NCBI GenBank assembly: GCA_937139335.1
Contig: CAKZPN010000007.1
Span: 1-61,195, forward strand
Reading direction: 5' to 3'
Source: an uncultured Roseicyclus sp.
GTDB taxonomy: Bacteria > Pseudomonadota > Alphaproteobacteria > Rhodobacterales > Rhodobacteraceae
DNA: 61,195 bases
Positions 43,768-47,240 of the stretch are shown here, piece after piece. A program made the position numbers and the translations under genes. The notes beneath the pieces were generated by a model. That model searched no databases. It was given only the letters and a program-made list of their open reading frames with translations, and was not told where the DNA came from. The number at the start of each line of letters is the position of its first letter. The first letter of the stretch is position 1.

Positions 43768-45108
43768 CTACATGTGGGGGGCGTAGATTTCCGCCACGCG
43801 GGCCACCACGGCCTCGAGCGGCAGCTCCTCGCTCTCGCCGGTCCGGCGGCTGGTCAGCTCCACCACGCCATTGCCGAGCCCGCGCGGGCCGACGGTGACG
43901 CGCCAGGGCAGGCCGATCAGGTCCATGCTGGCGAATTTCGCGCCGGCGCGTTCGCTGCGGTCGTCGTAGAGCGGCTCCAACCCCTTGGCGGTGAAGGCTT
44001 TATACAGGTCCTCGCAGGCCCCGTCGCACGCCGCGTCGCCCTGCTTCAGGTTCACGATCCCGACGTGGAAGGGGGTGACGCCCTCGGGCCAGATGATGCC
44101 CTTGTCGTCGTGGCTCGCCTCGATGATCGCGCCCACCAGGCGGCTGACGCCGATGCCGTGCGAGCCCATGTGGACGGGCACGCGGCCGCCCTGGCCGTCG
44201 TCGACCAATGCCCCCAGCGGCACGGAATACTTGGTGCCGAAATAGAAGATCTGACCCACCTCGATGCCCCGCGCAACCCTTTGACGATCCTCGGGAATGT
44301 CCGCGAAGATCGCGGCGTCGTGGGTCTCGTCGGTGCGGGCGTAGCGGGAGGTGAATTCCTCCAGCACGGCCTGGCATTGCTCGCGCGAGTCGTAGTCGAT
44401 CTCGCGGTCGCCAAAGCGCAGCTCGGTGATCTCGCTGTCGTAGAATACCTCGCTCTCGCCGGTCTCGGCCAGCACGAGGAATTCGTGGGTGTCGTCGCCG
44501 CCGATCGGCCCTGAGTCCGCGCGCATCGGGATCGCCTGCAGGCCCATCCGCTCGTAGGTGCGCAGGTAGCTGACGAGGTGGCGGTTGTAGGCGTGCAGCG
44601 CGTCTTCCTTGGTCAGGTCGAAATTGTAGCCGTCCTTCATGAGGAATTCGCGGCCCCGCATCACGCCGAAGCGCGGGCGGATCTCGTCGCGGAACTTCCA
44701 CTGGATGTGGTAGAGCGTCAGCGGCAGATCCTTGTAGCTGGTCACATGCGCACGGAAGATGTCGGTGATCATCTCCTCGTTCGTCGGACCATAGAGCATG
44801 TCGCGGTCATGCCGGTCGCGGATGCGCAGCATTTCCGGTCCGTAGGCGTCGTAACGCCCTGATTCCCGCCACAGATCGGCCGGTTGCAGCGTGGGCATCA
44901 GCATCGGGATATGGCCCGCGCGGATCTGCTCCTCATGCACGATCTGCTCGATCCGCTTCAGCACCTTATAGCCCAGCGGCAGCCAGGAATAGATCCCGGC
45001 GCTCGCCTGCTTGATCATCCCTGCGCGCAGCATCAGCCGGTGGCTGACGATCTGCGCCTCGGACGGCGTTTCCTTGAGGACGGGCAGGAAATAGCGGCTG
45101 AGGCGCAT
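43768..45108 (-). CDS. proS: Prolyl-tRNA synthetase (short alphaproteobacterial type)
   Basis: A 446-residue class II synthetase. [20 protein letters not shown] is at the start, and motif 1 is [19 protein letters not shown] with MLMPTLQP. Motif 2 ([20 protein letters not shown]) is near 138-157, and motif 3 ([17 protein letters not shown]) near 310. The roughly 180-residue editing insertion between motifs 2 and 3 found in E. coli ProS is absent, as is usual in alphaproteobacteria. The C-terminal anticodon domain follows. Its ribosome binding site is buried in a hairpin (45117-45155). It lies 81 bases downstream of a 46-residue peptide gene. Confidence 0.98.
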
Positions 45109-45116
45109 GGAGAAAC

Positions 45117-45155
45117 CCTTTGGCGAGACACGTCCCGCGACGCATACGCCAAAGG
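45117..45155 (-). promoter_or_regulatory. Hairpin sequestering the proS ribosome binding site
   Basis: On the minus strand CCTTTGGCG (45147-45155) pairs perfectly with CGCCAAAGG (45117-45125), extendable by a U-G pair. The 3' arm contains the proS Shine-Dalgarno AAAGG(G), seven bases before ATG 45108. Inside, CGTC-GCGG-GACG forms a second short stem, leaving internal loops TATG and TGTCT. No U run follows, so it suggests translational control rather than termination. Confidence 0.6.
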
Positions 45156-45189
45156 AAATCGCCTCACAAGCCGGGGTTCGGCGGGCGAC

Positions 45190-45330
45190 TCAGAGGGCGG
45201 GCAGGGCGAGCGCGCCGGTCGCGGGGGCAAGCTCTGCGGCGTTGGCGGCATGAAGCGCGCTCGCCAGAACGATGCAGGCGGCGAGGATCAGAACCAAAAG
45301 CGCGGCAGACAGGATGTTGAAGAGCGACAA
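45190..45330 (-). CDS. 46-residue membrane peptide
   Basis: A short frame starting at TTG 45330 with AGGGA about nine bases upstream. The product begins SLFNILSAALLVLILAACIV, a single transmembrane helix, and ends with a small polar/alanine tail (ATGALALPAL). It matches the neighbouring 32-residue peptide in the first 25 positions (SLxN.L...L..LIL....VL), so the two look like paralogues. It lies 81 bases upstream of proS. The function is unknown and translation is unproven. Confidence 0.5.
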   Translation of the reverse strand: MSLFNILSAALLVLILAACIVLASALHAANAAELAPATGALALPAL

Positions 45331-45418
45331 GGCAGCTGTCCCTGATGATGAAGCTTCAAGATAGGGCTGCACGGGGCGAGGCAACAGTCCGGCTTTCCCT
45401 ACCCCGCCGCATCGGCGG

Positions 45419-45446
45419 AAAAAGGCCCCCGGGGGCACCGGGGGCC
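45419..45446 (-). terminator. Intrinsic terminator of the 32-residue peptide gene
   Basis: Eight-base arms GGCCCCCG (45424-45431) and CGGGGGCC (45439-45446). On the minus strand the stem is followed by TTTTT (45423-45419). It lies 26 bases past the stop of the small gene. Confidence 0.8.
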
Positions 45447-45472
45447 AGTCCAACAGGGAGGGATAGACAGGG

Positions 45473-45571
45473 TTACGCCGCCGTCAGGACCCCGGTGCCG
45501 AAGATCAGAACCGTGAACGTCACGAGGATCAGGAAGACAAGGGACACGGCGAGAGTGTTCAGCAGGGACAT
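45473..45571 (-). CDS. 32-residue membrane peptide
   Basis: ATG 45571 with GGAG about nine bases upstream opens a 32-codon frame (MSLLNTLAVSLVFLILVTFT and on, ending GTGVLTAA). It is almost entirely one transmembrane helix. The coding start, ribosome site and the adjacent terminator make it a complete mini-transcription unit. It is similar to the 46-residue peptide downstream. I know of no named family; it could be a stress-related or complex-stabilising small membrane protein. Confidence 0.6.
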   Translation of the reverse strand: MSLLNTLAVSLVFLILVTFTVLIFGTGVLTAA

Positions 45572-45662
45572 GGCAGTATCTCCGGACGGTCAGACGACGG
45601 CGATGACCCGAACCTAGTCCAAGCCGCGCCCCGACCCTAGTCAGGGAATCCCTACCGGAAGG

Positions 45663-47240
45663 TTACGCCGCGCCTTCGACGATCGCCTCGACCCCCATGG
45701 CCGAGGCCAGCGCCTTGAAGCGTGCCTGCGCGACCTCGCCGAACAGGTCGCGGCCCGCGTCCGTGTGCAGCGTCAGGATCAACTCCTTGCGCTTGGGCCG
45801 AAACACCAGCGTGCCGTGCTGCGACGGGTTGGCCACCGCGAACATGGCGCCGAAGCGCATCGCGCGCCCGAGGATTTCGGCCTCGCGCACCTGGCTTTCG
45901 GGCAGGAGCGTGAGCAGGTCGGGGTCAAATCCGGTGCCGGTCCGGGTCGACTTGTATCGGTGCAGGAGCGCGAGACCAAGATAGACGCGCTCGCCATGCG
46001 TCATGCCGCCGAGGTTGGCGCGCGTCGCGTTGTCGAAGCACACCTCGGCCCGGTAATCGGGATGCGCGCGCCAGCTCACGTCGTGCAGCAGGCAGGCAGC
46101 GCGGATCAGGCGTTTGCGCTCGGGACGGGCGCGCGCGAACAGCGGGTCCACGAAAGTGTAGAGCTGCCGGCCGAAACCGGGCATCCGCGCCGATTGCGCC
46201 TCGGAATGGCGGGCGGCCTCGATCAGCGGGTCGCGCTTGCGCAGCGTTTCCGACATCTGTTCGTAGAGCAGCCCCTCGCGGATGCCGTAGGACGACACGG
46301 CGATCTCGCGCGGCCTGAGCTTGCGGACCAGCACCTTCAGCACCTCGGCGGCGTGCGGCACCAGGCGCATCCGGTCGCCGCTGGTGCCGGTCGCGGCGCG
46401 CAACTCGTCGATGCCGGTCTTGCCAATGTACTTGATCGTGTCGAGGATGCCCTGCGGCGTCATCCGGTATTCGTGCAGCACCTTGAGCGGGTAGCCGCGG
46501 CGCTCCATGTCGATGCGCGCGATCGCGCGCCACGAGCCGCCGACCAGGAACAGCCGCTCGGAACGTTCGGCGAAATCCTGCGCCAGCACGTTCACCTCGG
46601 CCTTGATATGGCTGCGAAGCGCCTTCTTGCCGCCCTTGAGCCCCATCAGTTTCAGCGGCCCGAGGTCCGAGGTGGCGCGATGCCCGACGGTGCCCTCGCC
46701 CTTCAGCTCGGCCAGTTCCATCGACGAGCCGCCGATGTCACAGATCACGCCCTCGGCCCCCGGCCAGCCCAGAAGCACGCCCTGCGCCGACAGCCGCGCC
46801 TCTTCCGAGCCGTCGATGACGCGGATCTCTAGACCGGCCTCGGCGCGCACCGCGTCGCGAAACTCGGGCCCGTCCTCGGCGTCCCGGATCGCAGCGGTGG
46901 CCACGGCCAGAAGCGGCGCGACCTCGGCCGCCTCTGCCAGGCGGGCAAAGCGTTTCAGCGCCGCCATCGCGCGGACCTTGCCCTGTGGGTTCAGCCGGCC
47001 GGTCTCGGAAAACCCTGCGCCAAGGCCGCACAGGATCTTTTCGTTGAAGAAATATGCCGGGCTGCGCGCCGCGCCGTCGAAGATCACCATGCGGACGGAA
47101 TTCGAGCCGATGTCGATGACCCCGACGCGGGCCAGCGCCTGCGCCTCGGGTCCATCGAAGAGCGGCACACCGAAGGGTCCCCACTCGGGATGGTGCTCGG
47201 GGCCGTCCGGCGGGGTGTCGGCGCGCATCTGCCTCGTCAT
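45663..47240 (-). CDS. ppx: Exopolyphosphatase (Ppx/GppA family)
   Basis: A 525-residue protein. The actin-like ATPase/phosphatase fold shows GVIDIGSNSVRMVIFD near 40-55, LLAVATAAIRDAEDG near 108, CDIGGSSMELAEL near 165 and a C-terminal HD-like segment (LIRAACLLHDVSWRAHPDYR). It removes terminal phosphates from polyphosphate, or pppGpp in GppA-like members. It follows ppk1 by 55 bases on the same strand, forming a polyphosphate turnover pair. Confidence 0.95.
   Translation of the reverse strand: MTRQMRADTPPDGPEHHPEWGPFGVPLFDGPEAQALARVGVIDIGSNSVRMVIFDGAARSPAYFFNEKILCGLGAGFSETGRLNPQGKVRAMAALKRFARLAEAAEVAPLLAVATAAIRDAEDGPEFRDAVRAEAGLEIRVIDGSEEARLSAQGVLLGWPGAEGVICDIGGSSMELAELKGEGTVGHRATSDLGPLKLMGLKGGKKALRSHIKAEVNVLAQDFAERSERLFLVGGSWRAIARIDMERRGYPLKVLHEYRMTPQGILDTIKYIGKTGIDELRAATGTSGDRMRLVPHAAEVLKVLVRKLRPREIAVSSYGIREGLLYEQMSETLRKRDPLIEAARHSEAQSARMPGFGRQLYTFVDPLFARARPERKRLIRAACLLHDVSWRAHPDYRAEVCFDNATRANLGGMTHGERVYLGLALLHRYKSTRTGTGFDPDLLTLLPESQVREAEILGRAMRFGAMFAVANPSQHGTLVFRPKRKELILTLHTDAGRDLFGEVAQARFKALASAMGVEAIVEGAA

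What the first reader, a model, noticed from the sequence alone, without database searches (positions are those of the whole stretch)
45109..45160. Hairpin burying the Shine-Dalgarno of proS: candidate RNA switch
A perfect 9-bp stem (10 with a U-G pair) in the proS leader uses the Shine-Dalgarno AAAGG as part of its 3' arm, and an inner CGTC/GACG stem gives it a compact two-stem form with internal loops. Such exact pairing of the ribosome site is unlikely by chance and there is no U run, so translational control of prolyl-tRNA synthetase by temperature, a ligand, tRNA or a protein is a reasonable idea. T-box control of synthetases is a feature of other phyla; I know of no described proS leader of this kind in alphaproteobacteria.
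Basis: partly seen in the sequence, partly recalled or inferred. Interest (0 to 1): 0.7.

Follow-up and report, generated by a model that had tools for sequence, protein, structure and literature searches.

The report
Gene promoter nested in masking hairpin
The hairpin that overlaps the ribosome site of a bacterial prolyl-tRNA synthetase gene also spans that gene's predicted promoter, so the gene's normal message likely starts inside the hairpin and lacks it, and only RNA running in from neighbouring genes would fold it and likely be muted.

Summary
The stem is real: CCTTTGGCG/CGCCAAAGG covers the proS Shine-Dalgarno (SD). Alone it is not improbable: such stems (9 bp or more) occur in 2 of 423 leaders sampled from this genome and in 2 of 423 shuffled ones. 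The decisive point is that its 5' arm is the spacer of proS's own predicted promoter: TTG-17/18-TA in 89 of 93 Rhodobacterales proS leaders, against 4-5 of 93 in control stretches, with a conserved A near the expected start. The start is predicted at 45133-45134, so the main mRNA would lack the 5' arm; a sensor switch there is not supported. Yet spacer-leader complementarity marks this genus (mean z -4 in 13 loci, -0.2 in 74 others), and variable leader bases favour pairing (P 0.005-0.01; both arms 0.007-0.044; spacer alone 0.05-0.15). RNA reading in from upstream is predicted to hide the SD in 11 of 13 species. Best reading: a start-site gate like that of phage T4 gene e, with proS translated only from its own promoter. 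The promoter part is strong, the gate moderate; an inherited coincidence is the main rival.

The parts
43768..45108 (-). proS, prolyl-tRNA synthetase, 446 aa
   Evidence: ORF; Pfam PF00587 and PF03129 over cut-off
45147..45155 (-). 5' arm of the stem, CCTTTGGCG; part of the 17-bp promoter spacer
   Evidence: sequence, fold
45117..45125 (-). 3' arm of the stem, CGCCAAAGG
   Evidence: sequence, fold
45116..45121 (-). Shine-Dalgarno AAAGGG, 7 nt before ATG
   Evidence: sequence
45164..45169 (-). -35 element TTGTGA (C at 45170 conserved too)
   Evidence: TTG-17/18-TA in 89 of 93 Rhodobacterales proS leaders; CTTGTGAGGCG invariant in 15 of 15 genus rows
45147..45163 (-). 17-bp promoter spacer GGCGATTTCCTTTGGCG, complementary to the leader
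45141..45146 (-). -10 element TATGCG (no T at -7, as in most alphaproteobacterial promoters)
   Evidence: PMC8407463 section 5
45133..45134 (-). predicted transcription start (conserved A at 45133)
   Evidence: A in 59 of 70 promoters from other genera at this offset; inferred, not measured
45190..45330 (-). small membrane-protein-like ORF2 (46 aa, TTG start), no terminator detected between it and proS
   Evidence: no Pfam match
45424..45446 (-). intrinsic-terminator-like site after small ORF1
45473..45571 (-). small membrane-protein-like ORF1 (32 aa)
   Evidence: no Pfam match
45663..47240 (-). ppx/gppA, codirectional upstream gene
   Evidence: Pfam PF02541 and PF21697

Best explanation
The 5' arm of the hairpin is the spacer of the conserved, predicted sigma-70 promoter of proS, so the main proS mRNA likely starts inside the hairpin (about 45133-45134) without that arm, while RNA reading in from the upstream genes would carry both arms and is predicted to hide the Shine-Dalgarno, so that proS would be translated only from its own promoter. 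Shown by sequence: the promoter pattern and its conservation, the arms, the complementarity across most of the genus, and the absence of a detected terminator before the proS promoter in 11 of 13 species. Predicted: the start site, and SD exposure in own-promoter RNA against burial in read-through RNA. Untested: that read-through RNA exists in the cell, and that burial lowers ProRS synthesis. It would work like the leader of phage T4 gene e, where late promoters within the 5' strand of the helix give mRNA free of the masking structure.
For: Promoter: TTG-17/18-TA in 89 of 93 leaders against 5 and 4 of 93 in two upstream control stretches and 4.5 on average in shuffles; C before TTG (55 of 70), T at -17 (42 of 70) and A near the start (59 of 70) are conserved in other genera. 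The genus-conserved block begins at CTTG: upstream is 0.61 conserved, -35 1.00, spacer 0.91, -10 0.94, leader 0.71. The same promoter type, present before three genes chosen for it in the own genome, is kept in the genus: hisS 13 of 13 loci, cox15 12 of 12, trmJ 12 of 12. Mapped alphaproteobacterial promoters most often have a 17-bp spacer and a start 6 bp after the -10, and mostly no -7T (PMC8407463 section 5). Gate: spacer-leader duplex mean z -3.97 in 13 genus loci against -0.20 in 74 others, and -4.12 against -0.25, 0.11 and 0.24 for the three control genes. Own spacer-leader pairs are more stable than relabelled ones (-20.6 against -18.8; 3 of 5000 as low; relatedness not corrected). Remapping minority bases of variable leader columns gives P 0.005-0.010, both sides 0.007-0.044. 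Covariation score of the 12-pair consensus 0.259 against 0.178 shuffled, 0 of 500. Predicted SD exposure 0.34-0.72 in own-promoter RNA against 0.00-0.19 in read-through RNA in 11 of 13. The sense-strand duplex is stronger than the antisense in 10 of 13. ppx codirectional upstream in 13 of 13; no terminator by a simple scan before the promoter in 11 of 13.
Against: No transcript data. L093 and L095 show no masking difference. The two species with a terminator at -134/-133 (L086, L087) keep the stem, L087 the most stable of the 13, while the four with ppx only 77-84 nt upstream have the weakest complementarity by z (by energy L086 is as weak): opposite to a simple read-through story. Litoreibacter (L067, L080) has ppx close upstream but no stem; codirectional and other neighbours do not differ in complementarity outside the genus (26 against 48, P 0.44). 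Swapped spacer/leader pairs from different clades often pair as well as own pairs or better. Remapping the spacer columns alone is not significant (P 0.05-0.15). In the plain 9-bp count, paired cells barely exceed shuffles (35 of 500 reach the observed value), and a +1 slide of the 12-pair structure has more double changes than the structure itself. The whole block folds better on the sense strand in only 8 of 13. thrS in the same genus does not fit the TTG-17-TA pattern.
Confidence: 0.45

Rival explanations
1. Ordinary promoter plus ordinary SD: a chance complementarity between spacer and SD arose in the ancestor of the genus and has been carried along because both stretches are held by their own jobs. 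The hairpin has no function.
For: SD stems of this size occur at chance frequency (2 of 423 leaders, 2 of 423 shuffled). Own and swapped pairs often pair equally well. Stem strength does not follow read-through opportunity. Other promoter spacers in the genus are also fairly conserved (hisS and cox15 0.82, trmJ 0.67).
Against: The leader diverges (last 15 nt 0.61 identity) yet variable leader bases favour pairing (P 0.005-0.01; both sides 0.007-0.044), the outer stem is built differently in different clades, and the proS spacer is the most conserved of four (0.91).
Confidence: 0.35
2. A sensor switch (temperature, ligand, tRNA or protein) in a long main proS leader that contains the whole hairpin.
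For: Stable fold over the SD, z -4.1.
Against: The predicted promoter lies inside the hairpin, and its pattern holds across the order; no Rfam match there; element not found in the 119 other family genomes searched (strict filters) and no complementarity on average in 74 other Rhodobacterales leaders; loop region variable in the genus.
Confidence: 0.07
3. A DNA operator: the two arms are half-sites, about 30 bp apart centre to centre, for a regulator that covers the proS start site.
For: The arms flank the predicted start; the spacer is unusually conserved (0.91).
Against: The exact inverted repeat occurs once each in 2 of 13 genus genomes, at proS, and nowhere else in those 13; CTTTGGCGTATG is unique in the genome; several species keep the pairing through G-U pairs, which break DNA symmetry, and the sense duplex is stronger in 10 of 13.
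Confidence: 0.1

Closest known systems
Phage T4 gene e (lysozyme) leader, also soc, 49 and I-TevI (PMC3014915, passages read)
   Same: A helix sequesters the ribosome site in longer transcripts; promoters lying in the 5' strand of the helix give shorter mRNA without it (gene e).
   Different: Here a chromosomal housekeeping gene with a sigma-70-type promoter; read-through RNA and repression are not demonstrated; no early/late programme.
Alphaproteobacterial sigma-70 promoters without -7T (PMC8407463; abstract, sections 5, 10 and 11, and passages read)
   Same: TTG -35, 17-bp spacer, -10 ending in another base than T, start about 6 nt downstream; translation genes among their typical targets.
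   Different: The spacer is complementary to the gene's own leader.
T-box, riboswitch and RNA-thermometer leaders (recalled; Rfam families searched)
   Same: SD occlusion as the proposed output.
   Different: No family match; the 5' arm is predicted not to be in the main mRNA; no sensor part seen.

Membership tests
Alphaproteobacterial sigma-70 promoter | TTG -35, 17-bp spacer, TA-starting -10 | tested here: met
   89 of 93 proS leaders (85 at 17 bp, 4 at 18), controls 4-5 of 93; window TTGTGA-17-TATGCG
Alphaproteobacterial sigma-70 promoter | mostly no T at -7 | tested here: met
   window G at -7; 0 of 89 have T at the last -10 position
Alphaproteobacterial sigma-70 promoter | transcription start about 6 nt after the -10 | tested here: inconclusive
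   conserved A at the 8th base after the -10, next to the expected +1, in 59 of 70; no mapped 5' end
T4 gene e-type start-site gate | promoter lies within or over the 5' arm of the masking helix | tested here: met
   as a predicted promoter: 5' arm 45147-45155 inside the spacer 45147-45163
T4 gene e-type start-site gate | SD hidden in long RNA, exposed in short RNA | tested here: inconclusive
   by folding prediction only: 11 of 13 species yes, L093 and L095 no
T4 gene e-type start-site gate | long transcripts exist and are poorly translated | not testable with these tools
   needs RNA and reporter data; no terminator detected in 11 of 13
Riboswitch / RNA thermometer in the proS leader | whole hairpin in the main mRNA | tested here: not met
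   by prediction: start 45133-45134 is downstream of the 5' arm; no mapped end
Riboswitch / RNA thermometer in the proS leader | structure conserved among relatives | tested here: inconclusive
   kept in most of the genus, not found in 119 other family genomes
T-box leader | match to the T-box family model | tested here: not met
   no T-box match in the window at gathering score, nor at E up to 5 in 44900-45700
Intrinsic terminator | stem followed by a U run | tested here: not met
   one search lists only 45446-45424 in 45000-45700

The most novel reading that the evidence does not exclude
A bacterial housekeeping gene whose promoter spacer doubles as an anti-Shine-Dalgarno: every message that does not start at proS's own promoter carries its own mute button, so ProRS output is insulated from read-through of the upstream ppx and small-membrane-protein genes. 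A T4 gene e-type gate in a chromosome, readable from promoter-leader complementarity.
Probability: 0.35. Interest if true: 0.6.

Novelty: new variant of a known kind. Interest (0 to 1): 0.38.

Why it matters
It turns a supposed sensor switch into a testable case of translation depending on where a message starts. If the gate is real, promoter spacers can carry a second, RNA-level code, and adjacent bacterial genes can be insulated from each other without a terminator. It also shows a pitfall: hairpins over ribosome sites in short leaders should be checked against the promoter before being called riboswitches.

Tried and rejected
Rejected: a sensor switch in the main leader (predicted promoter inside the hairpin); a T-box or other Rfam family; a terminator (no U run); a regulon-wide DNA operator (exact inverted repeat only at proS in 2 of 13 genomes).

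Led nowhere or flawed: one search aligned several loci in the wrong orientation and is not used; one search replaces it. One search used a pattern with one N too many (it missed even the own genome) and is not used; the covariance-model searches replace it: the element is found once at proS in 13 of 13 genus genomes (plus one weak match in G012, E 0.52) and in 1 of 120 family genomes, that one being G000 itself (whose stricter filters lose some weak matches). The covariation count on the 9-bp stem alone is weak. The read-through association outside the genus is null. Neighbour calls use long ORFs only and are crude. The scan allows spacings 16-19 and prefers those near 17-18, so the spacing tally is partly built in; the presence or absence counts are not. 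L004/L090 and L005/L096 have identical leaders and are probably the same species. Control genes: 3 of the 5 other hits were used. In thrS, 11 of 12 loci tried gave a leader, and its promoter does not fit TTG-17-TA. Paper searches that ran; no proS leader of this kind was seen in those listings, which is not proof that none is in print. Start-site data for R. sphaeroides exist (PMC7471390; outline and abstract only seen), but I did not see the tables.

Full report
WHAT IS THERE. proS (446 aa; Pfam class II core and anticodon domains) lies at 45108..43768 on the minus strand. Its leader contains CCTTTGGCG (45155-45147) and CGCCAAAGG (45125-45117), which overlaps the SD AAAGGG. The 51-nt piece folds at -24.9 kcal/mol, z -4.1, with 0 of 200 shuffles as stable.

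CHANCE. In 589 kb of the same genome (window plus 27 stretches), perfect stems of 9 bp or more whose 3' arm covers the SD region occur in 2 of 423 leaders (proS is one) and in 2 of 423 shuffled leaders. Gene starts there were called by a simple rule, so the count is approximate. One such stem in a 61-kb window picked by eye is not remarkable in itself.

THE PROMOTER. Fetching 80 named Rhodobacterales proS loci (the best 80 of a capped list) and the 13 genomes of the genus changes the picture. 89 of 93 leaders have TTG-N3, 17 or 18 bases, then TA, with the TA 33-45 nt before the start codon, against 5 and 4 of 93 in two stretches further upstream and 4.5 on average in shuffles. In 70 promoters of other genera with a 17-bp spacer, a C before TTG (55 of 70), T at -17 (42 of 70) and an A next to the expected start (59 of 70) are also conserved; TTG and TA themselves are fixed there by selection of the rows. 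The window reads TTGTGA-17-TATGCG. In mapped alphaproteobacterial promoters the most frequent spacer is 17 bp and the most frequent distance from -10 to start 6 bp, and most lack T at -7 (PMC8407463, section 5); translation genes are among their typical targets (passages; section 10). In the genus, conservation begins at CTTG: upstream 0.61, -35 1.00, spacer 0.91, -10 0.94, leader 0.71. Three other genes, taken from the hits of a search for this pattern in part of the own genome, keep it across the genus: hisS 13 of 13 loci, cox15 12 of 12, trmJ 12 of 12 (one genome lacked a match for the last two). thrS does not fit it. So the predicted start is 45133-45134, the leader is 25-26 nt, and the 5' arm (45155-45147) is spacer DNA, not part of the main mRNA.

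THE COMPLEMENTARITY. It is nonetheless not a one-off. Spacer and leader pair with mean z -3.97 in 13 genus loci but -0.20 in 74 other Rhodobacterales loci, of which 4 are below -2. For hisS, cox15 and trmJ the mean z is -0.25, 0.11 and 0.24 in the same genus, for proS -4.12. A covariance model finds the element once at proS in 13 of 13 genus genomes and in none of 119 other family genomes (strict filters). The outer stem differs by clade, for example GAAACCCTTTGGC with GCCAAAGGGTTTC in L087 and GGCGTTTTCCTTTGGCG with TGCCAGAGGGATGCGCC in L091. When the minority bases of variable leader columns are reassigned at random with the pattern across species kept, the observed pairing is reached in 0.5-1.0% of trials (leader only), 0.7-4.4% (both sides) or 5-15% (spacer only), for transition weights 1 to 8. 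The 12-pair consensus has covariation 0.259 against 0.178 shuffled, 0 of 500; that structure was derived from the same rows, and its +1 slide has more double changes, so I give this little weight. The plain 9-bp count is weak (88.0% against 86.1% of cells paired, 35 of 500). The sense duplex is stronger than the antisense in 10 of 13, which favours RNA over DNA, though the whole block folds better on the sense strand in only 8 of 13.

WHAT IT WOULD DO. Folded from its own start, the SD is 0.34-0.72 unpaired; in read-through RNA 0.00-0.19 in 11 of 13 species, with no difference in L093 and L095. With a fixed SD window, a difference above 0.25 is seen in 10 of 13 genus loci against 4 of 74 others. 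ppx lies upstream in the same direction in 13 of 13, and in 11 of 13 a simple scan found no terminator between the last upstream ORF and the proS promoter; in the window the terminator-like site at 45446-45424 precedes small ORF2, not proS. This anatomy is that of phage T4 gene e, whose longer early transcripts hide the ribosome site while late promoters in the 5' strand of the helix give free mRNA (PMC3014915, passages read).

AGAINST THE GATE. L086 and L087 have a terminator at -134/-133 and keep the stem; the four species with ppx only 77-84 nt away have the weakest complementarity by z, although by energy L086 is as weak. Litoreibacter has ppx next to proS without the stem, and neighbour direction does not predict complementarity outside the genus (26 against 48 loci, P 0.44). 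Swapped spacers and leaders often pair equally well. Thirteen related sequences cannot settle selection on pairing.

VERDICT. Promoter reading: about 0.85. Gate with a function: about 0.35-0.45. Inherited coincidence: about 0.35. Sensor switch in the main leader: below 0.1. The genus is probably Roseicyclus, since the records L004 and L005 so titled have leaders identical to those of two genus genomes.

Noticed in passing
45473-45571 and 45190-45330 (-): Two small membrane-protein-like ORFs (MSLLNTLAVSL..., MSLFNILSAAL...) between ppx and proS, no Pfam match; ORF2 relatives, found by a short N-terminal pattern, in 4 of 13 genus genomes including this one.
   Followed up: partly
45384-45403 and 45637-45656 (-): Both small ORFs are preceded by a GGTAGGGAWWNCC block; with up to 2 mismatches the 20-nt pattern occurs only at these two places in the genome, and GTAGGGA lies upstream of ORF2 in all four genomes in which I found ORF2. 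It looks like a shared activator site.
   Followed up: partly
45419-45474 (-): Weak Rfam match to the R. sphaeroides sRNA SorX (32.2 bits, E 8.8e-6, below the gathering score of 46.6) just after small ORF1, including its terminator: a possible 3'-UTR-derived sRNA, or just a strong terminator hairpin.
   Followed up: no
L097-L102, L104, L106-L109 (thrS upstream regions): About 45 nt of the thrS leader are nearly invariant in the 11 genus leaders extracted (11 of 12 loci tried), while the promoter spacer varies; a GGCG...CGCC loop holds CGT, a Thr anticodon, as in the E. coli thrS operator (recalled). No Rfam match in three loci and the fold of one is not special (z 0.07).
   Followed up: partly
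L168-L179 (RNA-methyltransferase-like gene, called trmJ here from recall): Its conserved CTTG-17-TA promoter puts the predicted start within a few bases of an upstream ATG that is in frame in the rows I checked, so the mRNA may be leaderless, and the start used in my search is too far downstream.
   Followed up: no
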